Made by a program: the position numbers and the translations under genes
Source of the DNA: Streptomyces sp. SUK 48
GTDB lineage: Bacteria > Actinomycetota > Actinomycetes > Streptomycetales > Streptomycetaceae
DNA: 64,000 bases
Direction: 5' to 3'
NCBI RefSeq assembly: GCF_009650765.1
Contig: NZ_CP045740.1
Span: forward strand, 744,001 to 808,000
Part shown: piece after piece, positions 24,054 through 39,614 of the stretch
Position numbering within the stretch: the stretch's first letter is position 1
Layout: each line of letters begins with the position of its first letter
The notes under the pieces: generated by a model
Seen by the model: only the letters and a program-made list of their open reading frames with translations
Database searches by the model: none
Told to the model about the DNA's origin: nothing

Positions 24054-24718
24054 AGAAGCCGTCCGATGGACGCCACGCCCACGAAGAACCGAGCGGACCA
24101 GACGAGCGAGCCTGGCAGCAGGACCCGCTGCTGTCGACGCTCCGCGACATCGGCGGCTGCCTCGCCGTGATCTTGATGGGAGTTCTGATCACCGTTCTGG
24201 TGTCGGCGGCCCGCGACGCCCGGTCGCGGATCGGCGACGTCAGGCAGCTACGCCGCTGTTCTGTCGACACGAATCGGGGCGGGGAGAGCGCGCAGATGGT
24301 CGCTCAGCGCTGTAGCCGAGCCGGCCGCCCAGGCGTCGAGCAGTCGCTCCAGTCGCGTCAAACGCTCGCGGGCGGTAGCCCGGAGCCGCGGCGGGGGATC
24401 CGGTCGAGTACGTCCAGCGCAGGGCCGACCGCCCGGTCCGGAGCATCGCGGGCTCCCGCGAGCGCGAGGACGAGGGTGGCGGCCACCCACCCCAGCGTCT
24501 CGGCGGGCACGGCGGCGAGCGACTCGCGGACGACGCCGGCCGCTCGGCCGAAGCGTTCGAGGGTGAGGTACCTCTCGGCGACCTCGTTAGCAACTCACGA
24601 AGGAAGATCATGGGCACGCAGCGGCACCCGGGCTCAGTCGCCGGCGGACTGGCAGCCGAACGACAGGACGGTGGCGGCATCCACGTGCCGTTCCTCTCCG
24701 GGTTACGCGACGGCGTGA
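24050..24718 (+). CDS. Small membrane protein with uncertain C-terminus
   Basis: The frame starts at an ATG coupled to the MFS stop. The first ~70 residues look real: a polar head, a hydrophobic helix (IGGCLAVILMGVLITVLV) and a charged end (SAARDARSRIGDVRQLRR). From about position 24260 the translation turns into Ser/Arg-rich noise until a stop at 24716, while the opposite strand there carries protein-like sequence. I think the original gene ended near 24250 and lost its stop at a junction, so the true product length is unknown. Confidence 0.45.
   Translation: MKKPSDGRHAHEEPSGPDERAWQQDPLLSTLRDIGGCLAVILMGVLITVLVSAARDARSRIGDVRQLRRCSVDTNRGGESAQMVAQRCSRAGRPGVEQSLQSRQTLAGGSPEPRRGIRSSTSSAGPTARSGASRAPASARTRVAATHPSVSAGTAASDSRTTPAARPKRSRVRYLSATSLATHEGRSWARSGTRAQSPADWQPNDRTVAASTCRSSPGYATA
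24240..24594 (-). pseudogene. Fragment of a helical protein, frameshifted
   Basis: On the minus strand two frames give natural-looking alpha-helical protein without a start: EVAERYLTLERFGRAAGVV and ETLGWVAATLVLALAGARD (about 24594-24365), then in another frame RERLTRLERLLDAWAAGS and HLRALPAPIRVD (about 24360-24250). A single frameshift would join them. No start codon or ribosome site is visible at the upstream end. It may be the remains of a regulator or TPR protein. Weak evidence; it rests only on residue composition. Confidence 0.3.
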
Positions 24719-26037
24719 AGGAGTTCGGACACGCCTTCCGCCGTCCGGTAGGGCGTGAAGGCGGGGGTCAGATCACGGACGAGCTGAACGCATCGTGGAG
24801 CTCCGATTCGTTCAGCCAGGCGGAGTGCTTCGAGGGCGTCGGCAGCTGCAGCTTCGGGTTCCCGACGGCTGAGGTGGCCTTGCGCCCGGTAGGCGAGGAA
24901 GACTCCGCGGGTCTTGTCACGGCTGGCCGGCAGGAGCGCTTGGCCTTCGGCGATGAGGCGGTGTGCCTGGGTCGTGTCGCCGAGATCGAGCAGGCAGCGG
25001 CCCGCGTCGACGGCGAGGTCGGCGTCCGAGTACCAGGAGCACCAGGCGGGCAAGTCGCCGTTGTTTCCGGCACTGAGGAGGCGTTCGGCCGCGTGCAGGG
25101 AGTGTTGGGTTGCGCGGCGTTCGCCGAGCGCGGCCTGGGCGCGTGCCAGGCGCAGGTGCAGCAGCGAGCTGGCAGCGGGGTGGGTGGTGCGGCTGAGGGC
25201 CTTGGTGAGGATGCCGGCGGCGGTGGTGGGGTCGTTCCGCCAGGATGCCTGGTAGGCGAGGTCGCTGAGGAGGGCGGCGCCCATGTCCCGGTCGTTCCCG
25301 GCGTGGGCGTTGTGCAGCCCGGCGATCCAGTACCGGCTGGCGGCGCCGTGCTGGCCGTGGTCGAAGCGGATCCAGGCGACGGTCTGGGAGAGGCCGGCGG
25401 CGAGCTTGTGCAGGCGCGCTCCCAGGGGGCGGGTGTAGCGCTGCTCCTCGATCAGGTCGGTGACGCGGGCGAGGTGGGCGTCGTAGAGGGGTGCGAGGTG
25501 CTGGCGTTGTTCGGTGGCCAGCGTGTTGAGGCGTGCGCTGGTCTCCTCCAGCAGGGTCACGACGTCCTCGCCGACCGCGGCGCCGGGGCGAGGGGGGCTG
25601 GCGGCGAGAGCCGTGGGTTCGGTTCCGGCCCAGCTTCCGGCAAGGACGACGAGCGCGGATCCGGGGATGGTGCTGAGCAGGGTTCGACGGTCCATGGTGT
25701 GCAGGGCCTCTCGCAGAGCGGTCACGGTGTTGGCGTGGCCGAGCGGCACGACACCCCGGTCGACGCGAGGAAGCCAGGCAGGCCAGGTGGCAGGATCCAC
25801 GTCATCTGCCGGGATGCCCAGGGCCTCCGCGATGTAGGTCTGGGAGACGGCGTCGGGCCGTACTTTGTTGACCTCCCACTTGCGCACCCGGGTCTTGTCC
25901 ACGCCGGAGCGAAGCCCGTGACGACGGGCGGCGACGTGCACGGCCTCGGCGAACTCAACACGGTTGAGACCGCGCGCGATTCTGACGGCGGCCAGCGGGT
26001 GGGGTGTGCGCTCATCCTCGTCCACGACGAAATCCAA
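24703..26037 (-). CDS. XRE-family regulator with TPR-like C-terminal domain
   Basis: 444 residues, transcribed divergently from the ProRS-paralogue operon. The N-terminus is an XRE helix-turn-helix (LAAVRIARGLNRVEFAEAVH, KTRVRKWEVNKVRPDAVSQT). A linker with a hydrophobic, possibly membrane-associating piece (STIPGSALVVLAGSWAG) leads to a long TPR-like helical domain (LSDLAYQASWRNDPTTAAGI, LLHLRLARAQAALGERRAT). This is a widespread Streptomyces regulator architecture, often controlling an adjacent cluster. The 221-base gap to the operon start holds a tandem repeat that could be its binding site. Confidence 0.85.
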   Translation of the reverse strand: MDFVVDEDERTPHPLAAVRIARGLNRVEFAEAVHVAARRHGLRSGVDKTRVRKWEVNKVRPDAVSQTYIAEALGIPADDVDPATWPAWLPRVDRGVVPLGHANTVTALREALHTMDRRTLLSTIPGSALVVLAGSWAGTEPTALAASPPRPGAAVGEDVVTLLEETSARLNTLATEQRQHLAPLYDAHLARVTDLIEEQRYTRPLGARLHKLAAGLSQTVAWIRFDHGQHGAASRYWIAGLHNAHAGNDRDMGAALLSDLAYQASWRNDPTTAAGILTKALSRTTHPAASSLLHLRLARAQAALGERRATQHSLHAAERLLSAGNNGDLPAWCSWYSDADLAVDAGRCLLDLGDTTQAHRLIAEGQALLPASRDKTRGVFLAYRAQGHLSRREPEAAAADALEALRLAERIGAPRCVQLVRDLTPAFTPYRTAEGVSELLHAVA

Positions 26038-26258: not shown

Positions 26259-26867
26259 GTGATCAAGCAATCCTTGACGGTGGATGAAGTCGTCGGTGGC
26301 GTGGCCGACCGCTATGCCGCTCTCGGTTTCCAGACCCGTGGAGACCTCGGGCAGCACTTCCTTCGGACGATGGACTGCGCGCACGCCCTGCTGGAGCGGG
26401 CCGGTATACCGGCGGGAGCACAGGTGCTCGAGGTCGGTGCGGGGCTGGGCACGCTCTCCTCGGCGATCGCGTCCGCCGGACACCGCATCTGGGCGGTGGA
26501 GAAGGACGAGCGGCTGCGGGACCACCTGACGGAGCGGCTCGCCCCGTTCGGGGCCCGAGCCCGCGTCACCTTCGACGACGTACGCCGCGTCGACCTGGAC
26601 GGCGGCCTGGACCTCGGCAGCGCGCTGGTCTCCATCATGCCGTTCGACCCCGATCTGTCCGCCGACCTGATCCGGCACGTGTTCGCCTGCCCCCGCGTGG
26701 AGTACGGACTCGTGGTCGTCCCCAGCGCCAGCTCCGTGCTGCTCAGCCGTCACGCGGACCTGGTGGTGGAGGAGGTCGACGGCATTGCCCGGGCCTCCTT
26801 CTGGCCGCCGGCTCCCACCGTGCTGCGGGTCCTCGCGGTCGGCCGGAGGTCGACGTGCAGCAGTTGA
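26259..26867 (+). CDS. KsgA/Erm-like methyltransferase with altered motif IV
   Basis: 202 residues related to rRNA adenine dimethyltransferases: DLGQHFLRTMDCAHALL, the SAM-binding VLEVGAGLGTLSSAIA, an acidic end of strand 2 (IWAVEKDERL). The catalytic N-[LI]-P-[YF] motif that positions the target adenine reads SIMPFD here, so the expected amino-group contact is lost or shifted. It is shorter than KsgA and lacks most of the C-terminal RNA-binding domain. It may methylate a small molecule rather than rRNA. The GTG start follows AAAGGA and is the first gene of the overlapping operon. Confidence 0.7.
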   Translation: MIKQSLTVDEVVGGVADRYAALGFQTRGDLGQHFLRTMDCAHALLERAGIPAGAQVLEVGAGLGTLSSAIASAGHRIWAVEKDERLRDHLTERLAPFGARARVTFDDVRRVDLDGGLDLGSALVSIMPFDPDLSADLIRHVFACPRVEYGLVVVPSASSVLLSRHADLVVEEVDGIARASFWPPAPTVLRVLAVGRRSTCSS

Positions 26868-28030
26868 TCGCCACGGGTTGCTTCCACTCCTCGCTGCCCG
26901 ACGGCCGCCGTGCCCTGTCGGCGCTGCGCTCCGCGCGGAAGACCGGGGCACTCGTCGTCGACGCAGGTGACTTCTTCTCCGGGAGCGCCTTCCACGCCTT
27001 CTCCGGCGGCCGCGTGGAGGAAGGGCTTTTGGCCGAGCTGTACGACGCGGTGGTCCCCGGCAACCACGACCTCTCCGACTTGATGCGGCTGCGCCGCCCC
27101 GAGGCGTTTCCGCCGGTCGTCTGCGCCAACGTCTCTCCACCGGCCGCCTTCGCCGGCCGGTGGACGTCCGGGCTGCTGCTGCACGGTGCGGGCCTACGGG
27201 TCGGGATCGTCGGCTACCTGGGCGAACAGGCGTACGAGGCAATCCCTCAGGCCGAGCGTGCGGGTTTCACCTACCGGGCCCCGACGGCCATGCTGATCGC
27301 CGCCGAGGCCGAAGCGCTGCGGTCGGCCGGTGCCGATGTGGTGGTCGGGGTGAGCCACAGCGGCTTCCTGGTCGATGTCGCCGACCAGGAGGCCGAGTGG
27401 CCGCTGACCACGGTGATCTCCTCGCACTGCCACTCCCCGTGGACGCACTGGACGCAGGGGACCCGGCACGTGGCCAAGCCGGCCGCGCTGGGCGCCGGGC
27501 TGCTCCGCCTCGACCTCGGCGTCGACGGTCTGCTCAGCGTGCGCCACGACGCTCCCGCCGCGAGCGGCGGCGCGGAACAGCCGTTCATGGAAGCGGAGTT
27601 GAAGGCGTTCACGGCATGGGGGGATCAGCCTGTGGGCCGTCTCGCGACCGCCCTGCCCCGGCGAGAGGACGCCGCCCGCCTCTTGGCCGCCGGCGCGCTG
27701 CACGCGACGGGCGCCGACGCCTTCGTCCTCAACACCTACACGCTGCGAGCAGGACTGCCGTCCGAGGTGACCCGGGCGGCGCTGTGGGCCTGCGCGCCCT
27801 TCGACAGCGACCTCGTCGTGCTGGACGGCGCCCACTCGCCGCGTGCTCTGGCCGCGCGGGCTCGCGAGCTGGGCGAGGCCCTCACCGTCGCGCCGGCCCC
27901 GGCGGCCGCGGACCCGAGGCGCGTCGCCACCACGTCCTACCTCGCCGGGCGTCTGCGACTGCCCGCCCGGCCTCCCCTGACGCCGTGCACGCTGCACGGC
28001 GTCCTCACCGCCCACCTGGAGACGTTATGA
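26855..28030 (+). CDS. 5'-nucleotidase-like metallophosphoesterase
   Basis: 391 residues with the calcineurin-type metallophosphoesterase layout: GCFHSS near the start in place of the usual D-x-H, VVDAGDFFSGSAFHAF, the VVPGNHDLSD signature (GNHD) and histidine-bearing VVGVSHSGFLVDV and ISSHCHSPWTHW. The C-terminal ~150 residues match the 5'-nucleotidase accessory domain in size. No signal peptide is seen, unlike most periplasmic 5'-nucleotidases, so it is likely cytoplasmic and may act on a nucleotide intermediate. The GTG start overlaps the previous gene by 13 bases. Confidence 0.78.
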   Translation: MQQLIATGCFHSSLPDGRRALSALRSARKTGALVVDAGDFFSGSAFHAFSGGRVEEGLLAELYDAVVPGNHDLSDLMRLRRPEAFPPVVCANVSPPAAFAGRWTSGLLLHGAGLRVGIVGYLGEQAYEAIPQAERAGFTYRAPTAMLIAAEAEALRSAGADVVVGVSHSGFLVDVADQEAEWPLTTVISSHCHSPWTHWTQGTRHVAKPAALGAGLLRLDLGVDGLLSVRHDAPAASGGAEQPFMEAELKAFTAWGDQPVGRLATALPRREDAARLLAAGALHATGADAFVLNTYTLRAGLPSEVTRAALWACAPFDSDLVVLDGAHSPRALAARARELGEALTVAPAPAAADPRRVATTSYLAGRLRLPARPPLTPCTLHGVLTAHLETL

Positions 28031-28842: not shown

Positions 28843-29399
28843 TCCTCACCGGACCCGCGATCCGCGAAGCCGTCGCCAACGGGACGATCACCATCGACCC
28901 CTTCGAGCCCGAGCTGCTGAACCCCAACAGCTACAACTACCGGCTCGGCGACCAGCTGCAAGAACTCACGAGCAGGCCGGCCGATCCCACCGTGCCCGCC
29001 CGCACGCGCGCCATCGACCTGAGCGACGGCGGCTTCGTGCTCCAGCCGGGCACCGTCTACCTGGGCACGACCGTCGAGACGATCGGCAGCGAGGACTTCG
29101 TCACCAGCCTGATCGGCCGCTCCTCCCTCGGCCGGCTCGGCTGCTTCCTGCAGATCTCCGCCGACCTCGGCCAACTCGGCGCCGTGCACCGCTGGACGCT
29201 GGAGATCACCGTGGTCCAGCCGCTGCGGATCTACCCGGGTATGCGCGTGGGCCAGGTCTCCTTCTGGCGTCCGGCCGGCCACCGCTCCCCCTACCGCGGG
29301 CACTACGGCACCCTCAGCGTCCCCGCCGCCTGGTCGCCCCGCGCCGCCGCCGGCCACGGCGCGGCCCCCACCCCTCGCCTCCAGGAGGTGACCGCATGA
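28839..29399 (+). CDS. dCTP deaminase-like protein, copy 1 (catalytic glutamate kept)
   Basis: 186 residues of the dCTP deaminase/dUTPase fold: ILTGPAIREAVANGTITIDP, LNPNSYNYRLGD, LIGRSSLGRLGCFLQISADL and TLEITVVQPLRIYPGMRVGQ. The glutamate at residue 122 corresponds to the catalytic Glu138 of E. coli Dcd, and the R-S-S motif is intact. A ~40-residue Ala/Pro/Arg tail follows the fold. It may deaminate dCTP or a cytosine nucleotide intermediate. It overlaps genes on both sides and is followed directly by a paralogue. Confidence 0.82.
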   Translation: MILTGPAIREAVANGTITIDPFEPELLNPNSYNYRLGDQLQELTSRPADPTVPARTRAIDLSDGGFVLQPGTVYLGTTVETIGSEDFVTSLIGRSSLGRLGCFLQISADLGQLGAVHRWTLEITVVQPLRIYPGMRVGQVSFWRPAGHRSPYRGHYGTLSVPAAWSPRAAAGHGAAPTPRLQEVTA

Positions 29400-29920
29400 T
29401 CCTCACCGGCCCCGAGATCACGTCCCGCGTCAAGGACGGCCGCATCCGCATCGAACCCTTCGACACGAGCCACGCCCAGCCCAACTCCTACGACTTCCAC
29501 CTCGGCGAGACCATCGGCTCCTACACCAGCCACATCCTGGACTGCGCCCGCGACAACGCCTTCGAACAGCAGCCCATCCCCACCGACGGGTTCGAACTGC
29601 AGCCCCACCGCATCTACCTGGCCGCCACCCGGGAGCGGATCGGCAGCGACCACTTTGTGCCGATCATCCGGGCCCGCTCCTCCATCGCCCGCCTGGGCCT
29701 GTTCGTCCACGTCACCGCCGACCTGATCGACCTCGGCTCCTTCGGTCAGCTCACCCTGCAACTGCACGCCGTGCAGCCGGTACGCATCTACCCCGGCATG
29801 CTGATCGGGCAGGTCACCTTCTGGGAGACGACCGGGGAACGCGTCCTGTACGAGGGCAAGTACCAGCACAGCAGCGGCCCGCAGCCCTCCAAGGCCCATC
29901 TCGACTTCGAGGACCGGTGA
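29396..29920 (+). CDS. dCTP deaminase-like protein, copy 2 (catalytic Glu replaced by Gln)
   Basis: 174 residues, collinear with the preceding protein from the first residues (MILTGPEITSRVKDGRIRIE) through PNSYDFHLGE, IRARSSIARLGLFVHVTADL and the end of the fold. At residue 122 the sequence is TLQLHAVQP where copy 1 has TLEITVVQP: the catalytic glutamate is a glutamine. The corresponding change abolishes deamination in the E. coli enzyme as I recall. It could be a pseudo-enzyme partner, since Dcd is a trimer with active sites at subunit interfaces, or it could act like a dUTPase-type phosphohydrolase. Confidence 0.8.
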   Translation: MILTGPEITSRVKDGRIRIEPFDTSHAQPNSYDFHLGETIGSYTSHILDCARDNAFEQQPIPTDGFELQPHRIYLAATRERIGSDHFVPIIRARSSIARLGLFVHVTADLIDLGSFGQLTLQLHAVQPVRIYPGMLIGQVTFWETTGERVLYEGKYQHSSGPQPSKAHLDFEDR

Positions 29921-30654
29921 ACACTCCCGCGGCCGTCGGCCGCGCACCGCACGGTCCCGACGGGCGGGGGGAGAAAGTGGTGGCCCTCGTTGCCCACCCC
30001 GACGACGCCGAGTTGCTGTGCTACGGAACGCTGCGCCGCGCCGCCCAGGCCGGGGCCACCGTGACCGTGGTCGTGGTCACCCACGGCGCGAACGGCGTCT
30101 CCCTGGCCGACGCCGCCGACGGCCGCCGCCTGGGCACCGACGAGCGGGCCGAAGAGGTCCGCGCGGCCTGGCGCTTAACCGGCATCCAGCTCACCTTCCT
30201 CGGTATGCCTGACGGGGCCCTGGTGGCCGACCGGCATCTCATCTCCGCCGTGGAGGCCGAACTGACCCGCCTGGGCTGCACGTTGCTGATCACCCACAGC
30301 CTGCACGCCGACACCGACCACCAGGACCACCGCGCGCTGGCCGGCGCCGCCGCGAACGCCGCCACCCGCGTGGCCACCTGCCACACCATCCTGCACGGCG
30401 AGCCCCACGCCGCCCGTGCCGCCTTCGCCCCCGCCGTCCTCGTCGACATCACCGAGCACCTCGACGACAAGGTCACCGCCCTGGCCGCACACCGCACCCA
30501 GGCCGGCCGCTGGTACCTCGGCAAGGACTACACCCACCACCGTGCCGCCCAGGCCGGATGGCACCTGCGCCCGGCGGCGGCCGAGGCCGGGCGCGCGTAC
30601 GAATCCTTCGAGACCTCCGTGCTCACCCTCTTCCCCCAGGAGGACTGGTCGTGA
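29917..30654 (+). CDS. PIG-L/LmbE family zinc-dependent deacetylase
   Basis: 245 residues. The zinc-binding and catalytic signature is complete: VALVAHPDDAELLCYG (H-P-D-D) near residue 30 and the second metal histidine in HADTDHQDHRAL. These enzymes remove N-acetyl groups from GlcNAc-type sugars (mycothiol, GPI and several antibiotic pathways). With a MurG-like and a GT4 glycosyltransferase in the same locus, deacetylation of an added GlcNAc is a reasonable role; this is inference. GTG start overlaps the preceding stop. Confidence 0.88.
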   Translation: MNTPAAVGRAPHGPDGRGEKVVALVAHPDDAELLCYGTLRRAAQAGATVTVVVVTHGANGVSLADAADGRRLGTDERAEEVRAAWRLTGIQLTFLGMPDGALVADRHLISAVEAELTRLGCTLLITHSLHADTDHQDHRALAGAAANAATRVATCHTILHGEPHAARAAFAPAVLVDITEHLDDKVTALAAHRTQAGRWYLGKDYTHHRAAQAGWHLRPAAAEAGRAYESFETSVLTLFPQEDWS

Positions 30655-31385
30655 TCTACATCGAACAGCCGCCCTTCGCGCCCTGGCTGGGTTTCTGCGA
30701 GGCCCTCTTCGCCTGTGACACCGTCGCCCTCTACGACGACGTGCCCTACACCGACGGCGGCTACCAGAACCGCAACCGGATCAAGACGGCCGACGGGGTG
30801 CGCTGGCTGACCGTCCCGGTCACCCGCGCCCCCGGGCAGCTGATCCGTGACACCCCCATCGCCCCCGGCTTCGACGCCGACCGCATGCTGCGCACAATCC
30901 GCCTGGCCTACGCCCGTACCCCGCACGCCGACGAGGCGCTGCACGTCCTGCAACCCGTGCTCGGCCAGAGGCACACCTGGCTGGCCGACCTGAACATCGA
31001 GCTCCTCACCCACATCCGCGCCGCCCTCGGCGCGCCCGCACGCCTGCAGCTCACCTCCGAGATGCGCATCGCCGACACCGACCGCACCCGGCGCCTGGCT
31101 GCCATCTGCGCGGCCGCCGGCTGCAAGGTCCTGTGGGCGGGCTCCGGCACCCGCAGCTACCTCGACACCACGGCCCTGGCCCAGCACCACGTCAGCGTGC
31201 GGTGGAACGAGTACGCCGACCGCCACCCCGTCTACCAGCAGGCTTGGCCTCGGCAGGGCTTCGCGCCCAACCTCTCCGTCATCGACACCGTCTGCGCACT
31301 GGGCTGGGCGGGCACCGCGGCGCTCCTGCGCACCGGCCTTGCCACCCACCTCCAGCAGCCCGCCCCCAAGGAGGCGACCGCGTGA
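30651..31385 (+). CDS. WbqC-like family protein
   Basis: 244 residues with the WbqC signature: IYIEQPPFAPWLGFCEALFA, YDDVPYTDGGYQNRNRIKTA and WLTVPVTRAPGQLI. The family occurs in O-antigen and secondary-metabolite clusters and has been suggested to be an amide- or ester-forming or aminoacyl-transfer enzyme, but no activity is firmly established to my knowledge. The conserved Asp, Asn and Lys residues of the YDDVxYxxxxxxNRNxIK motif are present. It is translationally coupled (GTGA) on both sides. Confidence 0.8.
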   Translation: MIYIEQPPFAPWLGFCEALFACDTVALYDDVPYTDGGYQNRNRIKTADGVRWLTVPVTRAPGQLIRDTPIAPGFDADRMLRTIRLAYARTPHADEALHVLQPVLGQRHTWLADLNIELLTHIRAALGAPARLQLTSEMRIADTDRTRRLAAICAAAGCKVLWAGSGTRSYLDTTALAQHHVSVRWNEYADRHPVYQQAWPRQGFAPNLSVIDTVCALGWAGTAALLRTGLATHLQQPAPKEATA

Positions 31386-32488
31386 GCCGCCCACTGATCC
31401 TCACCGGCATCGACCTGCCCCTGGAGCCCTCGTGCGGCTCGACCATCTGGTGCAGCGACGTCTACACCCGCCTGACCGGGCACGGCTACGACACGCTGTT
31501 CGCGCACCTGCCCGGCAGCGGAACCTGGCAGCACGGCTTCACCTCAACCGCCCAACTGGCCGCACGGAAAGCACCGTACGGGCCCGGCTTCGACGCGTAT
31601 GCCGACGCGCTCACCGACGAAGTCCGCGGCCTCGTGCGCGCACACCGGCCCGAGGTGATCCACGCCCAGCACCTGGGATTCGGCCTCGCGCTCGCCTTCG
31701 CGCGGGCACGCGGCGAGGTGCCGATGGTGTCCGTCGCGCACGGCACCGACATCATGGCCGCCACCCAGCACGCCCAGGCGCGCGCCGTCCTGAACGAGAT
31801 CGCCGACGCGAGCAGGAGCGTCATCGTCCCCAACGCGGCCATGGCCGACGAGGTCAACCGGCTCACCGACCACCGCCACCCAGACCGGCTGGCGGTCGTG
31901 CCCTGGGGGGTGCCGCTTCCCGCAGCCCCGACAGCTCACCCGCGCCCCGGGGACCGGCTGCGCCTGGTCCACGCGGGCCGCCTCGACGCCAACAAGTCCA
32001 CGATCACCGCCATCGAGGCCCTTGCGCGGACCACGGGACACCAGCTCACCGTGATCGGCAGCGGCAGCGAACTCGACACCCTCACCCGGCGCTCCGCCGA
32101 ACTCGGCCTCGCAAAGCGGGTGACGTTCGAGCCGTTCCTGCCCCGCCAGGACCTGCTCAAGCGGTTCGGTGACTTCGACGCGATGCTGTTCACCACCCGC
32201 ACGCTGGAGGCATACGGCCTCGTCGCCGTCGAAGCCCAGGCGCACGGCCTGCCCGTCCTCTACAGCAGCGTCCCCGGGCTGGAGACCACCCTGGGCCCGG
32301 GCGGCCTGGGCTTCCCCCCGGGCGACGCCGCCGCCCTCGCCTCGCTCATCGACCACCTGGCCGCCAGCCCCGCCACCCGGCAGCTCCTCCACCAGGCGGC
32401 CGTCGCCAACGCCCGCGGCTACGACATCGCCCACACCGCGGCCCATCTCGCCGCGCTGTCCCGCACCGCGAGGGAAGGCTCCCGATGA
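31382..32488 (+). CDS. GT4-family glycosyltransferase
   Basis: 368 residues in the GT-B fold. The N-terminal domain has VIHAQHLGFGLALAFARA and HGTDIMAATQH; the C-terminal donor-binding domain has RLVHAGRLDANKSTITAIEA and the E-x7-E-like EAYGLVAVEAQAHGLPVL. Glycosyltransferases of this group use nucleotide-activated sugars with retention of configuration. Acceptor and donor are unknown; the deacetylase two genes upstream hints at an amino sugar. It starts with GTG overlapping the WbqC gene. Confidence 0.85.
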   Translation: MSRPLILTGIDLPLEPSCGSTIWCSDVYTRLTGHGYDTLFAHLPGSGTWQHGFTSTAQLAARKAPYGPGFDAYADALTDEVRGLVRAHRPEVIHAQHLGFGLALAFARARGEVPMVSVAHGTDIMAATQHAQARAVLNEIADASRSVIVPNAAMADEVNRLTDHRHPDRLAVVPWGVPLPAAPTAHPRPGDRLRLVHAGRLDANKSTITAIEALARTTGHQLTVIGSGSELDTLTRRSAELGLAKRVTFEPFLPRQDLLKRFGDFDAMLFTTRTLEAYGLVAVEAQAHGLPVLYSSVPGLETTLGPGGLGFPPGDAAALASLIDHLAASPATRQLLHQAAVANARGYDIAHTAAHLAALSRTAREGSR

Positions 32489-34155
32489 GCACTGTCCCCC
32501 TGTACGCCAGCCGCCTGTGGCCGCCGGTCCGGCCCCGCACCGGCGACGCCTGCGCCTCCACTCTCGACCTGCTGCACACCCTCGGCCTGATCGCCCGCAC
32601 GGATGCGACCGGAGTCCACACCCTCCTGCCGCTCGGCGTACGGGTGCACGACCGGCTCACCGCCATCGCCCGCCACGCCTTCGAGGAACGCGGCGCCCTG
32701 ACCTTCGCCCCGCCCACGCTGCAGAGCCGCACCCTGTGGGAGCAGACCGGGCGCTGGGACGTCTACCGCCGCGAAGGGGCGCTGCTGACCGTGGCCTCCT
32801 CCAGTGGCGAGGAGATGTGCCTGGCCCCCACCTCCGAGGAGATCGCGGCCGCCACCGTCCGCAAGCACCTGCGCTCCCACCGGGACCTGCCCGTGCGCCT
32901 GTCGCTGAGCACCACCAAATTCCGCGACGAACTCTCCCCGCGCGGCGGGCTGATGCGCGGCCGCGAATTCACCATGGCCGACGCCTACACCTTCGACACC
33001 GGCCCCGACACCATGCGCGAATCCGTCGCCTTCCTCAACGACGCCGTCGCCGCCGCCCTCACCGGCATGGGCCTGACCGGCACCTTCACCGCCCCCGCCG
33101 ACGGCGGCAGCATCTCCGCCGGCCCCAGCACCGAACACCTCGTCCTCGCCGACAGCGGGCAGGGCACCATCGTCGCCTGCACCCACTGCGGCAACCGCGG
33201 CGACGGCGCGGTCGTCGCCGCCGGGCCCCCGCCGCCCGGCCCGGACCCGGTCGTCAACGTCATCGCCTTCACCCTCACCCTGCCCGACGGCACCACCCAG
33301 ACAGCGACCGTCGCCATCCGCTCCGGCCTCCACGTCAGCCCCCGCAAGATCGCCGCCGCCACCGGCGCCGCCCGCGTCGACCTCCTCGACCCCGACCACC
33401 TTCCCCACCTGCTCGGCAAGAAGGCCGGCACCCTCACCCCCTGGGACGCCGCCGGCGCCACCGGCGTCCTGCCCCTGTACGACCTGTCCGCCGCAGAACT
33501 GGAGACGTTCGGCATCTCCGACGGAGACACCGGGCTGCGCACCGGCATCAGCTGGAGCGGCACCCGCAGTCTGCCCGCGCTGCATCCGGGCGGCGCCGAT
33601 CTGCACCACGCGATCGAGGGCAGCGCGTGCGGCGCCTGCCGCCAGGGCCGCTACAACGTCCTGCGCGCCGTCGAGGTCGCCCACGTCTTCGAACTGGGCA
33701 CGCAGTACACCACCCCCATGAACCTCCGCTACAACGACCCCGACGGCCGGCCCACAACCCCCTGGATGGCCTGCTCGGGCATCGGCATCACCCGCTGCCT
33801 GCAGACCGCCGCCGAGCTCAACCGCGACCGGCACGGCCTGCGCTGGACCCCGGGCACCGGACCCGCCGACATGCACCTCGTGGTGCTGCGCGCCGATCAG
33901 AGCGACATGCGCGACCGCGCCGACCGTCTCGCCCGCGACCTCACCGCCCGCCGCATCAGCGTCCTCGTCGACGACCGGCCCCTGCCCGCCGGCGACAAGC
34001 TCCGCTACGCCCGCCTCCTCGGCCTGCCCCACGCGGCCGTCCTCTCCCCCGACCGCCCCGACACCCAGATCGAGGTCATCGCCCGCTCCACCGGACGCAC
34101 CACCCGTACAGATCTCAGCCACAGCGCCGACCGCACTCCTTTCACCCACCCATAG
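32485..34155 (+). CDS. Prolyl-tRNA synthetase paralogue (ProRSx-type)
   Basis: 556 residues of a bacterial-type ProRS. Class II motifs are visible: motif 2 region KFRDELSPRGGLMRGREF (145-162), the CLAPTSEE loop (112-119), VAHVFELGTQYTTPMNLRY (398-416) and motif 3 GIGITR (432-437). An inserted editing-type domain lies between (SGLHVSPRKIAAATG), with two Cys pairs (CTHC, CGAC) uncommon in housekeeping ProRS, and an HGTP-type anticodon domain ends the protein. The sequence diverges strongly from a housekeeping enzyme and sits 197 bases before a tRNA with prolyl acceptor and alanine anticodon. This matches ProRSx, described by Vargas-Rodriguez and colleagues (PNAS 2021). It is the last gene of the nine-gene overlapping operon. 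Confidence 0.88.
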   Translation: MSTVPLYASRLWPPVRPRTGDACASTLDLLHTLGLIARTDATGVHTLLPLGVRVHDRLTAIARHAFEERGALTFAPPTLQSRTLWEQTGRWDVYRREGALLTVASSSGEEMCLAPTSEEIAAATVRKHLRSHRDLPVRLSLSTTKFRDELSPRGGLMRGREFTMADAYTFDTGPDTMRESVAFLNDAVAAALTGMGLTGTFTAPADGGSISAGPSTEHLVLADSGQGTIVACTHCGNRGDGAVVAAGPPPPGPDPVVNVIAFTLTLPDGTTQTATVAIRSGLHVSPRKIAAATGAARVDLLDPDHLPHLLGKKAGTLTPWDAAGATGVLPLYDLSAAELETFGISDGDTGLRTGISWSGTRSLPALHPGGADLHHAIEGSACGACRQGRYNVLRAVEVAHVFELGTQYTTPMNLRYNDPDGRPTTPWMACSGIGITRCLQTAAELNRDRHGLRWTPGTGPADMHLVVLRADQSDMRDRADRLARDLTARRISVLVDDRPLPAGDKLRYARLLGLPHAAVLSPDRPDTQIEVIARSTGRTTRTDLSHSADRTPFTHP

Positions 34156-34301
34156 ATTAACTCCAATAAACACCCGGAAAAGCAAGGCGACACCACCCCA
34201 GGGCGACGCCTCGAATTGGCGTACCCGAAATCAGAAAACACGTCTGCGATTCAGCGGGTCCGCGCGGCGGCGAAAATTATTCACCCAACCGCACGGGCCC
34301 G

Positions 34302-34330
34302 TTGACCGCAGACTGCAGAAGGTCTAGCGT
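34302..34330 (+). promoter_or_regulatory. Predicted promoter of the tRNA gene
   Basis: TTGACC at 34302-34307 and TAGCGT at 34325-34330 are separated by 17 bases, a good match to a vegetative (HrdB-type) promoter. Transcription would start near 34337, about 15 bases before the mature 5' end of the tRNA. The rest of the 34156-34351 gap is comparatively A/T-rich and shows no gene. The tRNA can therefore be made independently of the ProRSx operon. Confidence 0.6.
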
Positions 34331-34351
34331 CCTTCTCATCGCACCTCCAAA

Positions 34352-34426
34352 CGGGTCGTAGCTTAATTGGTGGAGCACGGCAAAAGCGTTGCCGAGGATC
34401 TGGTTCGAATCCAGACGGCCCGACCA
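34352..34426 (+). tRNA. tRNA-Pro-like with anticodon AGC (tRNA-ProA type), CCA encoded
   Basis: A complete cloverleaf can be drawn. Acceptor CGGGTCG/CGGCCCG (one T-G pair), D arm GCTT/GAGC with G18G19, anticodon stem CGGCA/TGCCG, four-base variable loop AGGA, T arm TCTGG-TTCGAAT-CCAGA, discriminator A73 and encoded CCA. C1:G72 and A73 are prolyl identity elements and the alanine element G3:U70 is absent (G3:C70). The seven-base anticodon loop AAAGCGT puts AGC at 34-36, which reads the alanine codon GCU. Position 33 is A, not the near-universal U, and A32-U38 could pair. The gene lies directly behind the ProRS paralogue, consistent with a dedicated pair that inserts proline at GCU codons. Confidence 0.9.
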
Positions 34427-34500: not shown

Positions 34501-35580
34501 ATGAAAATCGCCATCACGGGCGGCGCCAGCGCCGGCCATGTCGTTCCGGCCCTCGCAGTCGCCGGCCAGCTCCGCGACCGTGGCGCCGAGCTCGTCTTCC
34601 TCGGACGCGAGAACACCATCGAGCACGACTACGCCCAGCGTGCCGGCATTCCCTTCCGCCACGTCCCCTCGGCCGGGCTGCGCCGCCACCGCTCCACCGG
34701 CAACCTGCTGATGCCGTTCACCGTCGCCCGGGGCATCCTCGCCGCCTTCACGGCGCTGCGGCGCGAACGGCCCGACGCGCTGTTCTCCAAGGGCTCGTAC
34801 GTCTCCGTGCCGGTCGGCATCGGCGCCGCCCTCGCCCGCGTCCCCGTCGTCATCCACGAGAGCGACCACTCCCTGGGCCTGGCGAACAAGATCCTGGGAC
34901 GCGTGGCCACCACCATCTGCCTGAGCGTTGCGGCTTCCGGCCCGGCGCCGCGCTGGATGCGCAACAAGACCCAGGTGACCGGACTGCCGCTGCGAGCGGA
35001 CCTTGCCGACGCCCAACCCGATGCGCTGCGCGAGCGCCTCGGCATCCCCGGCGGCAAACGGGTGCTGCTGATCTTCTGCGGAAGCAGCGGCTCGCAGCGC
35101 GTCAACACCGCCGTCCGCACTCAACTCGACGCCCTGTGCGAGCGGTACAGCGTGCTGCACGTCGCCGGCAAGGGCAACCTCGACCCCCAGCTCGCCGGCC
35201 GGCCCGGATACTGGCAGCTGGAGTACCTGCACGACGACATGCCGCACGCCCTGGCACTTGCGGACCTCGTCATCGGCCGGGCCGGGGCCACCACCCTGGC
35301 CGAACTCGCCGCCCTGCAACTGCCCGCCGTCCTGGTACCGCTGCCCGCCTCCGTCAGCCGCGGGGACCAGCTCGACAACGCGCGCGCCTACGCCACCCAG
35401 AATCCGGAGCGCTGCCGCGTCGTCGCCGACGAGGAACTGACCGACGCCGGCGTACTCGTCCATGCCTGCGCCGCCCTGTCCGCCGTCCCCCGCGGCGGGC
35501 AGGGCGCCGGACCGCGCCCGGAAGCCGCGGCCCAACGCATCGCCGAGCTCGTCCTGCAGGCGGCGAACCGGCACAGGTAA
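34501..35580 (+). CDS. MurG-like GT28 glycosyltransferase
   Basis: 359 residues of the MurG family: ITGGASAGHVVPALAVAGQL (the glycine loop, GG-T-x-GH in MurG), VIHESDHSLGLANKILGR matching the MurG HExNxxxGxxN motif, and the donor-sugar site GRAGATTLAELAALQLPAVL. MurG adds GlcNAc to lipid I; this is clearly a paralogue outside the cell-division cluster. A secondary-metabolite or resistance role is possible. ATG 34501 follows AAAGGG. It starts 74 bases after the tRNA and may be read through from the tRNA promoter; a short hairpin (CCGTGGT/ACCACGG, 34460-34475) lies between. Confidence 0.85.
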   Translation: MKIAITGGASAGHVVPALAVAGQLRDRGAELVFLGRENTIEHDYAQRAGIPFRHVPSAGLRRHRSTGNLLMPFTVARGILAAFTALRRERPDALFSKGSYVSVPVGIGAALARVPVVIHESDHSLGLANKILGRVATTICLSVAASGPAPRWMRNKTQVTGLPLRADLADAQPDALRERLGIPGGKRVLLIFCGSSGSQRVNTAVRTQLDALCERYSVLHVAGKGNLDPQLAGRPGYWQLEYLHDDMPHALALADLVIGRAGATTLAELAALQLPAVLVPLPASVSRGDQLDNARAYATQNPERCRVVADEELTDAGVLVHACAALSAVPRGGQGAGPRPEAAAQRIAELVLQAANRHR

Positions 35581-35585: not shown

Positions 35586-35963
35586 TCAGTCGTGGTTGCC
35601 GTACATGCCGCGGATCTCCGCCTCGCTCTCACCCCGGTAGACGACATGCCAGTGCATGTGCTTCGACTCCTGGTACAACCCCAGGTTCGTCGTCACCGAG
35701 CACGCCCCGTACTCCTTCTCCACTCCAGCGGCCACCTCCCGCACCACCGCGACAACCTCGTGCAGGAGGCCCTCGTCGGAGTTCCCGAGGTCGGTGAGCG
35801 AAGGGACGTGCTCCTTGGGGATCACCACGATGTGCACCGGATACGACGGGTTGGTGTGGTGGAAAGCCAGCACCCGATCAGTCTCCGCCACCCTCTCGAT
35901 GGGGACCGCGCCAGTGAGCGCCTGATGGCAGTAGAAGTCGGAGACGGTCGCGGTACCGGTCAC
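35586..35963 (-). CDS. HIT-family nucleotide hydrolase/transferase
   Basis: 125 residues with the histidine triad KHMHWHVVY near the end and the upstream HIVVIPKEHVPSLTDL strand typical of HIT proteins. HIT enzymes cleave nucleotide phosphoramidates, dinucleoside polyphosphates or adenylates, including aminoacyl-adenylates (HINT group), which is of interest beside an aminoacyl-tRNA synthetase paralogue. I placed the start at the GTG at 35963 because the upstream extension lacks conservation-like sequence and GAAGG lies before it. It is convergent with the MurG-like gene (five-base gap) and divergent from the radical SAM gene. Confidence 0.82.
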   Translation of the reverse strand: MTGTATVSDFYCHQALTGAVPIERVAETDRVLAFHHTNPSYPVHIVVIPKEHVPSLTDLGNSDEGLLHEVVAVVREVAAGVEKEYGACSVTTNLGLYQESKHMHWHVVYRGESEAEIRGMYGNHD

Positions 35964-36184
35964 AGGCGCACACCTTCGCTGGGCAGGGATGTCGGAGGAA
36001 CGCCCGCTGTACGTCTGTGCCAGGCAGGCGCCGACGCCAGCGTAGCGATCAGCCAACCAACAGCCGAATCAGCTCAACACCGGCTGCACGAACGGGCGTT
36101 CTTCAAACACCTGTCGCGCTCCGCGGAACTCTTCCGCAAAGGACGCGCGAACCGATCCTGGACCATCGCGAAGGGACCATGTCC

Positions 36185-37081
36185 ATGACCGTCACGCTCG
36201 AACCCCCGGTAGCGAAGCCGCCGACCGTACCTCGGCTCCTCGAACTGGAGATCACCCGGCGCTGCCAGCTGACCTGCCCCACGCACTGCTACGCCGAAGC
36301 CGGCCCGACGCAGGGGCACGGCACCATGACCACCGACGAGTGGAAGCGGATCATCAGCGAGGCCGCCACCCTCGGCACGGAGCGTATCCAGCTGATCGGC
36401 GGCGAACCCACACTGCACCCCGGCTTCGGCGAACTCGTCGAGCACGCCCTGTCGAGCGGGGTGAAGGTGATCGTCTACTCGAACCTCTACCGCGTGCGCG
36501 CCGAGCACTGGGAGCTCTTCGCCCGGCCCGGCGTCAGCCTCGCCGCTTCCTACTACGCGGACACCGACGACGGCCACGACCAGGTCACCGGCCGCATCGG
36601 ATCCCGCGCCGCCACCCGGGCGAACCTGATCGAGGCGCACCGCCGCGGCGTCCACGTCCGGGTCGGGATCGTCGACGTCCTGGAGGGGCAGCGCGTCACC
36701 GAGGCCCGCGCGGACCTGAAGAGCCTCGGCATCACGGACATCCACACCGACCGGGTCCGTGCCGTCGGCAACGCCGCCAAGGGCACGGCCCTGCCGTCCA
36801 CCTCCGCGCTGTGCGGCCGGTGCGCCAACGGTGTCGCCGCGGTCCTGTCGGACGGGGCGGTCACCCCGTGCGTCCTGGGCCGATTCCTGCCCGCCGGTCA
36901 CGTCCAGGGCAATACGCTGCAGGGGGTGTTCGCCTCCCCGTCCTGGCGGCAGGTTGCCGCGAGCATCCCCGCCAGCCGGCATGACCCCTGCGGCCCCGAC
37001 TGCGGGCCCAACGACGACAGCTGCAAGGGCGGCGGCACCTGCGACCCCGCCTCCGGGCTCACTGCGACCACCGCGCACTGA
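36185..37081 (+). CDS. Radical SAM protein with SPASM-like cysteine-rich tail
   Basis: 298 residues. The N-terminal LELEITRRCQLTCPTHCYAE carries the iron-sulfur motif as C-x3-C-x3-C, one residue longer in the second gap than the canonical C-x3-C-x2-C. IQLIGGEPTLHP is the usual GGEP strand. The C-terminus has many cysteines (LCGRCANGVAAVL, PCVLG, HDPCGPDCGPNDDSCKGG) consistent with auxiliary clusters, as in peptide-modifying SPASM enzymes. ATG 36185 has AAGGG at nine bases; an ATG two codons earlier is too close to it. No precursor peptide was found nearby. Confidence 0.85.
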   Translation: MTVTLEPPVAKPPTVPRLLELEITRRCQLTCPTHCYAEAGPTQGHGTMTTDEWKRIISEAATLGTERIQLIGGEPTLHPGFGELVEHALSSGVKVIVYSNLYRVRAEHWELFARPGVSLAASYYADTDDGHDQVTGRIGSRAATRANLIEAHRRGVHVRVGIVDVLEGQRVTEARADLKSLGITDIHTDRVRAVGNAAKGTALPSTSALCGRCANGVAAVLSDGAVTPCVLGRFLPAGHVQGNTLQGVFASPSWRQVAASIPASRHDPCGPDCGPNDDSCKGGGTCDPASGLTATTAH

Positions 37082-37096
37082 ACGGGGAGAACCTCG

Positions 37097-38269
37097 ATGG
37101 ACTGGGAATCAGCGGCACACCGGCTCGCCGCCAGCATCGCCATCCGGCCGGAATCCCGCTGGTATGCGCCGCTCGCCACCACTCCGCGCCACCAGTTCGT
37201 GCCGCGCTGGTGGGCCCGGGACACCGAGGCCGGCGGCAAGCCCGTCTGGGTGCTCCGGGACGGCGCCGCTGACCCCGAGCAGTGGCTGCGGACTGCCTAC
37301 AGCGACAGCACGCTCGTCACCCGGGTCGGCTCCCAGCACGCCGACCACGCCGACCCGGGCCGGTCCCTCGTCCGCGGCTCCGACCGGTACTCCACGTCGT
37401 CCTCCACGCTGCCCTCCCTGGTGCTGCTGATGTACCGCTCCGGGTGCATCACCGACCGCTCCCGCGTGCTGGTGACCACCGGAAGCGGCTACGGCACCGC
37501 CCTGGCCTGCGCCCGCCTCGGCGACGACCAGGTCACAAGCGTCGACGTCGACCCCTACCTCGTCTCGGCGGCCCGACAGCGCCTCGCCGGCACCGGTCAC
37601 CACCCGCGGCTCGAGGTCTGCGACCTGACCAAGGAACTTCCCCACGGCAGCTACGACCGGATCATCTCCACCGTGTCGGTGCCCGCCGTGCCCGTCTCGT
37701 GGCTGGAGGCGCTCGCCCCCGGCGGACGGCTGGTGACCACCCTCGCCCGGACCGGGCTGATCATCGTTGCGGACAAGAACAGCGGCGGCGGGGCGAGCGG
37801 ATACGTCGCGCCCGAACCGGCCGGTTTCATGAGCACACGCCACGGCGAGGACTACGACAGCCCCCTCACGGACGACGCGCCCGGCTGGCAGCACGCCCGG
37901 CACGCCGAAGGGGAGACCAGCACGGGCCGCTACCCGCTGACGTACGTGCCGGACACCTGGGAGCTGCGGTCCACTCTCGAGCTCACGCTGCCCGGCATCG
38001 AGTACCGTCAGCACATCGCGGACGACGGCAGCCGCACCGTGTACATGCTGCACCCGGACGGCTCCTGGGCCCGGGCGACGGCACCGACACGCCACGAGCT
38101 GCCGACCGTCCACCAGGGCGGCCCATCCCGCCTGTGGGACGAGCTGGACCGCATTCGCACCTGGCTCGTCGTTGACGGCGACCTCCCCGTCCGAGGCGCC
38201 GCAGTGACCATCAGCCCCAACGGGGCAGTCGCCATCTCGCGGAAGGGCTGGACCGCCACGGTCGGATGA
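37097..38269 (+). CDS. PIMT-like SAM-dependent methyltransferase
   Basis: 390 residues. The N-terminal ~200 follow protein-isoaspartate O-methyltransferase: TTPRHQFVPRWW, LLMYRSGCITDRSRVLVTTG, then SGYGTALACARLG and SVDVDPYLVSAARQRLA. The C-terminal ~180 residues form an extra domain ending in PSRLWDELDRIRTWLV, the layout known from methyltransferases of the ATP-grasp and FxLD peptide systems. The usual LEIGTGSGY glycine motif is altered to VLVTTGSGYG. No ATP-grasp ligase is present, so the target is unclear. GGGGAG precedes the ATG, 15 bases after the radical SAM stop. Confidence 0.8.
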   Translation: MDWESAAHRLAASIAIRPESRWYAPLATTPRHQFVPRWWARDTEAGGKPVWVLRDGAADPEQWLRTAYSDSTLVTRVGSQHADHADPGRSLVRGSDRYSTSSSTLPSLVLLMYRSGCITDRSRVLVTTGSGYGTALACARLGDDQVTSVDVDPYLVSAARQRLAGTGHHPRLEVCDLTKELPHGSYDRIISTVSVPAVPVSWLEALAPGGRLVTTLARTGLIIVADKNSGGGASGYVAPEPAGFMSTRHGEDYDSPLTDDAPGWQHARHAEGETSTGRYPLTYVPDTWELRSTLELTLPGIEYRQHIADDGSRTVYMLHPDGSWARATAPTRHELPTVHQGGPSRLWDELDRIRTWLVVDGDLPVRGAAVTISPNGAVAISRKGWTATVG

Positions 38270-38318
38270 GACCGTGCCCAACCCAGCGCCCCGGCCTTTC
38301 ACGAACGAGGAGCGATCT

Positions 38319-39432
38319 GTGAACACCACCCGGCCCAACTGGTCCGAGCACTACATCCGGGGGCGAGGTTTCCGGCGGCTCGGCGACGACGAGAAGAAGT
38401 TGATCGTCGAGCACGCGCCGGCACACGAGGACGGCCGTGCCCTCGACGTCGGCTGCGGAACGGGCGAGATGTCCGTCTACCTCGCCTCGCTGGGCTACGA
38501 GGTGGACGCCGTGGACCTGGCCGACGCCGCGCTCGCGCGAGCTCGAACGGACCACCCCGACGCGAAGGTGCGGTGGCTGCGCCTGGACATCGAACGCGAC
38601 GACCTCGCCCCGCTGGGCAGCGAGCGCTATGACCTGGTGGTCTTCCGCTTGTCGGTGGCCTTCTTGCACGACCGCACCCGCATTCTGCACGCTCTCGGGC
38701 GCCGGCTGCGCGAAGGCGGCACCGTGCTGGTCATCACCCCGCTGGTGGCGCACACATCCGCCGAGAAGCGGCACATCGCGCTGGACGAGGACGAGATCAG
38801 CGCCTTCACCTGCGGATGGACGAGCGTGCAGCGCTTCGCCGTCGGCGACCTGGCGGCGCTGGTCCTGCGCGGGCCGTGCGCGGACACGGTCGCCATGGAA
38901 CGGTCCGTGCCGGCTACCGGCTACGCCGTTGCCGGGGCGCTGGCCGTCGTCACCGACGAGCACGGGCGCGTTCTGCGGCTGGTCCACACGCGGCATGTGG
39001 GAACTCCCCGGAGGGAAGATCGAGGGCGCCGAGCCGCTGGAGGGAGCCGGGGTGCGCGAGCTCGCCGAGGAGACCGGCCTGCACGCCAGCGGGGCCACCG
39101 TGGTGACCATCCTGACCGACGCCGCTCAAGGTGTCCCGCGCCTGACCGCCGTGATCCGGATCGCCGGCTTCACCGGCACACTCACCACCGCGGAGCCGCA
39201 CAAGTTCACCCGCTGGGAATGGCACGACCCCCACGCTCTGGGATGTCTCGGGCCGGTGTTCACCCCAGGCGCGCAGGCCCTGAACACCGTCTGGCCCGGA
39301 GTGATCGCCGGCCTGCCGCCGGTCCACTCCTATCCCACGGCCAATGTCGGACCCCGGGGTTCAGCGGGCTGCCGCTCGGCCGCGTCGCCGCCGACGGCAG
39401 CCTCGCCTCCTGGCCCCCAGGCCCCGGCCTGA
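38319..39432 (+). pseudogene. SAM methyltransferase-Nudix fusion interrupted by a frameshift
   Basis: From a GTG behind GAGGAG a class I methyltransferase domain is open (ALDVGCGTGEMSVYLASLGY, VRWLRLDIERDDLAPL), continuing through YAVAGALAVVTDEHGRVLRL, which is already the first strand of a Nudix domain. Near 38985-38992 the sequence shifts frame: MWELPGGKIEGAEPLEGAGV and RELAEETGL (a complete Nudix box GX5EX7REUXEEXGU) lie in the next frame and end at 39432. Removing one base, or adding two, would restore a ~370-residue fusion. The same two-domain protein is the natural reading; a sequencing error is the main alternative to real inactivation. Confidence 0.75.
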
Positions 39433-39557
39433 AGCGGGCCTTCCCGCTCGGCGGGCACTACCGACAACTTCGGCTCGATGAACCTCAGTTCCGGGACGAT
39501 GTGAACGATCCGGCACCCCGCACGGGGCCACCGGCAGACAAAGCCGCCGTTACCGAA

Positions 39558-39597
39558 GCGCCCTGCCCTCTTCAGTCTTCCTACCAGGGCAGGGCGC
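39558..39597. terminator. Bidirectional terminator hairpin
   Basis: A 12-bp perfect stem, GCGCCCTGCCCT pairing with AGGGCAGGGCGC, with a 16-base loop, between the end of the methyltransferase-Nudix gene and the convergent rubrerythrin gene. There is no long T run, as is usual in Streptomyces. It would stop transcription from both sides. Confidence 0.75.
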
Positions 39598-39614
39598 GGC
39601 TCCTTGGCCGACGG

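What the first reader, a model, noticed from the sequence alone, without database searches (positions are those of the whole stretch)
32485..34426. Prolyl-tRNA synthetase paralogue next to a prolyl-type tRNA with an alanine anticodon: a dedicated mistranslation pair
Seen: a divergent ProRS with intact class II motifs, followed within 200 bases by a tRNA with C1:G72 and A73 (prolyl identity) and anticodon AGC (reads alanine codon GCU). Known: Vargas-Rodriguez and colleagues (PNAS 2021) described ProRSx/tRNA-ProA in Streptomyces, mostly plant pathogens, which puts proline at GCU codons. Inference: this strain carries that system, and it sits at the end of a nine-gene coupled operon whose other members could be its users or its context. 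GCU is very rare in high-GC genomes, so the effect would fall on few, possibly chosen, genes.
Basis: partly seen in the sequence, partly recalled or inferred. Interest (0 to 1): 0.93.

Follow-up and report, generated by a model that had tools for sequence, protein, structure and literature searches.

The report
Private proline tRNA in biosynthesis operon
A spare proline-charging enzyme and an odd tRNA, described elsewhere as a pair for deliberate protein misreading, here form part of a conserved set of biosynthesis genes, which suggests that the tRNA hands proline to a small molecule rather than to the ribosome.

The parts
24703..26025 (-). NsdA-family TPR-like regulator, divergent from the operon
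   Evidence: NCBIfam NF053720 308.9 bits. Of 11 other intact loci, 4 have a 62-90% identical gene beside the operon (L006, L008, L009, L033), L011 a 46% one further off, L005 and L052 weak hits (27-29%), 4 none
26259..26867 (+). small RsmA/Erm-like methyltransferase (GTG start proposed), first gene of the coupled operon
   Evidence: Pfam RrnaAD, below KsgA and Erm cut-offs; motif IV reads S/A-I-M/L-P-F, not N-x-P-Y (motif recalled)
26855..28030 (+). calcineurin-like phosphodiesterase
   Evidence: Pfam PF00149
28027..28842 (+). TauD/TfdA-family dioxygenase
   Evidence: Pfam PF02668 75.6 bits
28839..29399 (+). dCTP-deaminase-like protein 1 (keeps T-L-E)
   Evidence: PF22769; 73.8 bits, below the NCBIfam cut-off of 92.8; alignment
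29396..29920 (+). dCTP-deaminase-like protein 2 (L-T-L-Q: the presumed catalytic Glu, recalled, is Gln in 12 of 12)
   Evidence: TIGR02274 106.4 bits, over cut-off; alignment
29917..30654 (+). PIG-L deacetylase, nearest NCBIfam models BshB1/BshB2
   Evidence: PF02585; TIGR04001 53.1 bits, cut-off 182.5
30651..31385 (+). WbqC-family protein with BshC-like fold; proposed prolyl transferase
31382..32488 (+). GT4 glycosyltransferase, nearest NCBIfam models MshA, SenB; BshA lower
   Evidence: PF00534; TIGR03449 65 bits, cut-off 462.5
32485..34155 (+). ProRSx, divergent prolyl-tRNA synthetase with editing-like insert
   Evidence: tree
34302..34330 (+). candidate promoter of the tRNA: TTGACC-N17-TAGCGT
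   Evidence: footprint across 15 loci; not reported by the strict sigma-70 scan
34352..34426 (+). tRNA-ProA (anticodon AGC, A33, CCA encoded)
34501..35580 (+). MurG-like GT28 glycosyltransferase
   Evidence: present in 14 of 14 intact loci and in the decayed one
35586..35963 (-). HIT (HinT-like) protein, convergent with MurG-like
   Evidence: NCBIfam NF007965 30.5 bits, cut-off 206; found in 12 of 12 intact loci examined for it, window included, and in L050; not looked for in L146 and L148

Best explanation
The pair is a private Pro-tRNA supply for a small-molecule pathway. Shown: ProRSx and its tRNA are fixed members of a conserved cassette of ten protein genes in every intact locus I could fetch. 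Inferred: GT4 moves an N-acetylated sugar onto an acceptor (perhaps nucleotide-derived, given two dCTP-deaminase-like proteins, a phosphodiesterase and a MurG-like GT28), PIG-L removes the acetyl group, and WbqC, a class-I-synthetase-like fold, places proline on the freed amine, taking it from Pro-tRNA-ProX. ProRSx is reported to favour this tRNA (E. coli work, seen in reviews only); its odd core and wrong anticodon with A33 would keep its proline out of normal proline decoding. TauD and the methyltransferase would tailor the product. The tRNA seems to have a promoter of its own, so it could be made apart from the operon.
Against: In E. coli tRNA-ProX does decode Ala, Asn or Thr codons as Pro (PMC10365949, PMC11415595), so A33 does not bar it from the ribosome; and E. 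coli ProRS also charges it, so a private synthetase is not strictly needed. WbqC-family genes elsewhere have no tRNA nearby (0 in L096 and 0 in L152), so the family does not require one; a ligase that uses ATP and free amino acid is possible, all the more as the fold is that of ATP-using enzymes. WbqC shows no sequence similarity to BshC (hhalign probability 0.1%; no BshC among the hits), and Foldseek alone gave BshC only E 0.05. In the 12 rows with a label the anticodon follows the ProRSx tree (AGU outermost, AGC one group), so it has moved with the synthetase rather than drifted. A distant ProRSx clade (11 clusters, P0156-P0166) shares no contig length with any listed WbqC or GT4 cluster, so it may lie elsewhere. 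Two WbqC+GT4 contigs (Asanoa iriomotensis, Streptomyces sp. tea 10) show no full-length ProRSx. No product or activity is known.
Confidence: 0.55

Rival explanations
1. Deliberate mistranslation, as published: ProRSx charges tRNA-ProA with proline and the ribosome puts it at GCU Ala codons, giving stochastic Ala-to-Pro variants. The cassette around it would be what benefits from, or triggers, the errors.
For: The tRNA hallmarks match the published family. Reviews report Pro at Ala, Asn and Thr codons in E. coli and carbenicillin resistance or tolerance (PMC10365949). The tRNA has a candidate promoter of its own. A34 could be made inosine by TadA, as in tRNA-Arg (PMC11415595), which would widen decoding beyond GCU.
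Against: The native role is stated as unknown. GCU use in the cassette is ordinary. The reading does not explain why the pair sits in the same biosynthetic operon in 14 of 15 loci, nor A33 in 15 of 15.
Confidence: 0.25
2. Self-resistance: the product or a precursor is a prolyl-AMP or prolyl-tRNA mimic, and ProRSx, with the HinT-like HIT protein, keeps the producer alive.
For: Cluster-borne synthetases can be the more resistant copy, as AcmD is (PMC12945691, passages). A HIT gene lies within about 1 kb of the MurG-like gene in 12 of 12 intact loci examined.
Against: Expression in E. coli suggests that ProRSx acylates tRNA-ProX and not tRNA-Pro (PMC11415595), so it could not rescue proline decoding; a resistant copy would not need its own tRNA with an Ala or Thr anticodon.
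Confidence: 0.08
3. The tRNA end itself becomes part of the product: the phosphodiesterase or another enzyme releases prolyl-adenosine or a short prolyl-oligonucleotide from Pro-tRNA, which the cassette then decorates.
For: Phosphodiesterase, dCTP-deaminase-like and HIT genes point to nucleotides.
Against: No precedent that I know; the PIG-L/WbqC/GT4 trio is better explained by an amino-sugar route.
Confidence: 0.05
4. WbqC or another enzyme uses free proline and ATP, and the ProRSx/tRNA pair serves to couple expression of the cassette to charging of a tRNA (a sensor or timing device).
For: WbqC has a class I synthetase-like type of fold; WbqC genes elsewhere lack a tRNA; the tRNA has a candidate promoter of its own.
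Against: I did not look for a T-box or attenuator; a dedicated synthetase is costly for a sensor.
Confidence: 0.07

Closest known systems
ProRSx/tRNA-ProA (tRNA-ProX family), Vargas-Rodriguez 2021 and Schuntermann 2023 (primary papers not held, nothing of them seen; known through PMC10365949, nearly whole text, and passages of PMC11415595 and PMC9437257)
   Same: Synthetase beside the tRNA, anticodons AGC and AGU, A33, A34, G21, A15-A48
   Different: Described as a mistranslation pair with unknown native function; the biosynthetic cassette is not mentioned in what I saw of the reviews. I cannot say whether the primary papers mention it.
Ascamycin biosynthesis, AcmD/AcmF (PMC12945691, passages)
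   Same: A cluster-borne synthetase makes aminoacyl-tRNA for a cluster-borne transferase
   Different: AcmD charges tRNA-Ala; here the cluster also carries its own tRNA; the transferase candidate is WbqC, not an AlaRS-like protein
Bacillithiol / mycothiol pathways (BshA-BshB-BshC, MshA-MshB-MshC)
   Same: Steps implied by GT4, PIG-L deacetylase and a BshC-fold enzyme
   Different: PIG-L and GT4 are far below the curated cut-offs of the Bsh/Msh models and WbqC does not hit BshC; the amino acid expected is proline, not cysteine; extra nucleotide-type enzymes
SbzA and cyclodipeptide synthases (class I synthetase-like folds that use aminoacyl-tRNA)
   Same: Rossmann class I synthetase-like fold in a natural-product setting
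   Different: No sequence relation shown; WbqC has only 244 residues

Membership tests
ProRSx/tRNA-ProX | tRNA-Pro acceptor end (C1:G72, A73) with non-proline anticodon | tested here: met
   C1:G72 and A73 in 13 of 13 aligned; AGC in the window
ProRSx/tRNA-ProX | A33, A34, G21, A15-A48 (PMC11415595) | tested here: met
   read from the window's sequence; A33 and A34 in 15 of 15 cassette tRNAs, U33 in 46 of 46 distinct host tRNAs examined
ProRSx/tRNA-ProX | synthetase outside the housekeeping ProRS clade, with a canonical proS elsewhere | tested here: met
   tree (39 rows, split 100/100; 4 long branches flagged); canonical copy in G000 and in 8 of 9 other carriers tried (the ninth, G895, has no copy at E 1e-150)
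ProRSx/tRNA-ProX | ProRSx ligates proline to this tRNA | not testable with these tools
   needs biochemistry
ProRSx/tRNA-ProX | Ala-to-Pro mistranslation in cells | not testable with these tools
   needs native-host proteomics; codon counts give no hint either way
Bacillithiol synthase BshC | BshC fold | tested here: met
Bacillithiol synthase BshC | sequence family (TIGR03998 or profile similarity) | tested here: not met
   TIGR03998 not among the 14 families hit by the 60 WbqC sequences at E 5; hhalign probability 0.1% against one BshC from a B. velezensis record
BshB / BshA / MshA equivalogs | score above NCBIfam cut-off | tested here: not met
   PIG-L 53.1 against 182.5 (BshB1); GT4 65 against 462.5 (MshA) and 43.4 against 273.7 (BshA)
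aminoacyl-tRNA-dependent natural-product pathway | cluster enzyme that transfers the amino acid from tRNA | not testable with these tools
   WbqC is proposed by fold, context and the W-L-G-F motif only
aminoacyl-tRNA-dependent natural-product pathway | synthetase inside a conserved biosynthetic-type cluster | tested here: met
   14 of 15 distinct loci found by ProRSx, the fifteenth a decayed copy; that the cluster is biosynthetic is inferred from the enzyme families
Erm/RsmA rRNA methyltransferase (resistance) | N-x-P-Y/F motif IV and score above cut-off | tested here: not met
   S/A-I-M/L-P-F in 12 of 12 aligned (motif recalled); 56.5 against 171 and 48.7 against 212 bits

The most novel reading that the evidence does not exclude
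The ProRSx/tRNA-ProX pair is a dedicated synthetase-plus-tRNA couple whose job is non-ribosomal, to my knowledge the first: it loads proline on a tRNA set apart from normal decoding so that a BshC-fold WbqC enzyme can put proline on an amino sugar of an unknown natural product. The reported mistranslation would be leakage. By extension BshC itself, whose mechanism a 2015 review calls unknown, may take its amino acid from aminoacyl-tRNA.
Probability: 0.45. Interest if true: 0.93.

Novelty: new variant of a known kind. Interest (0 to 1): 0.8.

Why it matters
The native role of ProRSx/tRNA-ProX is stated to be unknown (PMC11415595, PMC9437257, passages). A strict link to one biosynthetic-type cassette turns that open question into a few clear tests and could overturn the reading of the pair as a mistranslation device. 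A BshC-fold enzyme with its own aminoacyl-tRNA supply would also be a lead on how BshC adds cysteine, which a 2015 review calls unknown (PMC4360819, passages). The cassette points to a family of uncharacterised natural products in about 2% of sampled Streptomyces genomes (8 of 392, the window's own and one decayed copy included).

Tried and rejected
Targeted recoding: I expected GCU to be enriched or avoided in the cassette if mistranslation were aimed at it; 11 of 421 against 33 of 992 Ala codons shows neither (13 other window genes chosen by GC frame, not the whole genome). bldA control as a shared feature: TTA codons are scattered and not conserved. rRNA-methyltransferase self-resistance: motif IV is not that of an adenine-N6 enzyme. 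Sequence proof of a WbqC-BshC tie: none; the tie is of fold only. Fold search: Foldseek gave no match at E 0.001 or better; BshC was sixth, prob 0.98, E 0.05, TM 0.44, and stood out only in the second look. WbqC beyond the genus: of 394 genomes of the class, the window's own and one more matched at E 1e-30, the latter (G407) 35% identical and with no tRNA in its 19-kb stretch. Distant ProRSx clade (P0156-P0166): no locus could be fetched (viral contigs gave none; in the family sample no hit looked like it, the strongest being 45% identical to P0164), so its context is open. Contig-length matching between the protein lists is weak evidence: L053, on a contig of 31052 bases, has an intact ProRSx but is missing from the ProRSx list, since each cluster shows only its longest contig; and one search listed 120 of 270. 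GT4 relatives on three other Streptomyces plasmids lie outside such a cassette. BshC was sought first in three genomes without success. A look for the deacetylase of the tunicamycin route in PMC6105854 gave nothing on it. In one search the methyltransferase rows of L052 and L053 show a stop a few residues before the end of the aligned stretch; I took it as the natural end. The second structure job was not used.

Paper searches bearing on whether this is in print. In their listings I saw no paper that ties ProRSx or tRNA-ProX to a biosynthetic cassette, but the two primary papers are not held, so I do not claim that it is unpublished.
Full report
Observation. The ORF at 32485-34155 encodes a 556-residue ProRS-like protein (best PDB relatives are bacterial proline-tRNA ligases) with an editing-like insert just below Pfam's cut-off (24.2 against 25.5 bits) and an anticodon-binding domain. 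ARAGORN finds a single tRNA in 64 kb, at 34352-34426, anticodon AGC. Reading the letters gives C1:G72, G3:C70, A73, encoded CCA, A15, G21, A33, A34, and A at position 48. The last five are the hallmarks that a review lists for tRNA-ProX (PMC11415595, passages). The host's own tRNAs have U33 in 46 of 46 distinct sequences examined, and the cassette tRNA is the third lowest scoring of 68 tRNA matches in the genome. The genome has a second ProRS.

Relatives. A pattern scan of the genome collection gave 28 ProRS loci; 7 (L005-L011, 60-85% identical) are of the ProRSx kind and 21 are distant (26-37% identical) ProRS of other bacteria and archaea. A plasmid search gave 103 records, one of them at 89% (a linear Streptomyces plasmid, L033) and 102 under 60%. 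A sample of 392 Streptomyces genomes gave 8 carriers at E 1e-100, the window's own included. A sample of 394 Streptomycetaceae, searched with the distant P0164, rang in 312 at E 1e-60, nearly always the housekeeping enzyme; besides the window's own, three matches exceeded 400 bits (G895, G875, G857), G875 being the genome of L011. All were found by ProRSx, not by the rest of the cassette.

The pair is part of a cassette. All 14 intact loci carry, in the same order and direction, an RsmA-like methyltransferase, a phosphodiesterase, a TauD dioxygenase, two dCTP-deaminase-like proteins, a PIG-L deacetylase, WbqC, GT4, ProRSx, the tRNA and a MurG-like GT28. In the window the nine genes up to ProRSx overlap, mostly by 4 bases. 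A HIT gene follows on the other strand in 12 of 12 loci examined for it, and an NsdA-family regulator lies upstream in some; the window's other neighbours that I tested were not found in the other loci beyond stray hits. In the 392-genome sample the tRNA is found in the same 8 genomes as ProRSx, and WbqC (E 1e-30 or better) in 7 of these and in none of the other 384. The eighth, G058, keeps 89 residues of GT4, a ProRSx split in two with one stop inside, no WbqC, and recognisable tRNA, MurG-like and HIT genes. Protein distances of the other nine genes follow those of ProRSx with r from 0.70 (methyltransferase) to 0.96 (GT4) in 12 loci. dN/dS is 0.14-0.53 in the three pairs computed for each of the ten genes.

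The tRNA. Anticodons are AGC in 10 and AGU in 5 of the 15 loci. A33 and A34 are present in 15 of 15. In a 13-sequence alignment 99.3% of cells pair and 5 of 21 pairs change on both sides, against 0 of 500 shuffles that reach this; the two unpaired cells are in the anticodon stems of L008 and the decayed L050. So the tRNA is kept as a folded molecule. Just upstream lies TTGAC-N17/18-TAGCnT, ending 11-21 bases before the tRNA: TTGAC in 12 of 15 and TAGCnT in 13 of 15 best matches. A 12-position score of 9 or more is met in 15 of 15 loci, and in 13 of them at most 2.3% of 300 shuffles do as well, the exceptions being L050 (6.3%) and L053 (14.3%). The strict sigma-70 scan does not report it. On the ProRSx tree, in the 12 rows with a known anticodon, AGU is outermost and AGC forms one group, so the anticodon has moved with the synthetase.

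Other parts. The second dCTP-deaminase-like protein passes the family cut-off but has Gln where the family has its catalytic Glu (recalled), in 12 of 12; the first keeps Glu but is below the cut-off. The two may form a mixed enzyme with a new role (conjecture). The HIT protein is HinT-like at low score; that family splits nucleoside phosphoramidates (recalled). The product is therefore likely to hold a nucleotide-derived or amino-sugar part, but I cannot name it.

Mistranslation. GCU makes up 11 of 421 Ala codons in the ten cassette genes and 33 of 992 in 13 other window genes, so the cassette shows no sign of being aimed at or shielded. Published E. coli work does show that the tRNA decodes, and that E. 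coli ProRS charges it too, so leakage or a double role is possible.

Weak points. No biochemistry. One distant ProRSx clade shows no sign of the cassette, and two WbqC+GT4 contigs show no full-length ProRSx; neither could be fetched. The samples are of species representatives, and the two primary papers could not be read. I hold membership in a conserved cassette as near certain, use of Pro-tRNA by the cassette as more likely than not, and WbqC as the user as about even.

Noticed in passing
L050 (G058:C1:8155000-8174500): Decaying copy of the cassette: GT4 remnant and interrupted ProRSx, while tRNA, MurG-like and HIT genes remain; the tRNA seems to outlast its synthetase.
   Followed up: partly
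L033, NZ_CP108096.1 (312 kb linear plasmid): The whole cassette is carried on a linear plasmid of Streptomyces sp. NBC_00239, whose downstream genes include an amino acid-tRNA ligase-related protein, LD-carboxypeptidase and radical SAM genes.
   Followed up: no
proteins P0156-P0166 (S. tanashiensis, S. hayashii, metagenomes): A second, distant ProRSx-like clade (43-54% identical to the window's) with no contig length shared with listed WbqC or GT4 clusters; its tRNA and neighbours are unknown.
   Followed up: partly
window 29396-29920: dCTP-deaminase family protein in which the presumed catalytic Glu is Gln in 12 of 12 loci aligned, next to a divergent paralogue that keeps Glu.
   Followed up: partly
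window 36017-40208: A radical SAM/SPASM protein, an ATP-grasp-peptide-system type methyltransferase and another methyltransferase follow the cassette; no orthologue of them was found near the cassette in the other intact loci.
   Followed up: partly
window 35586-35963: A convergent HinT-like HIT gene is kept within about 1 kb of the MurG-like gene in 12 of 12 intact loci examined for it, though on the other strand.
   Followed up: partly
window as a whole: Nearest proteins are from S. murinus (ProRSx 97%) and S. incarnatus (GT4 97%), so the strain is probably of that group.
   Followed up: no
G895 (L146): This carrier has ProRSx but no close bacterial-type ProRS at E 1e-150; its housekeeping enzyme may be of another type.
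   Followed up: no
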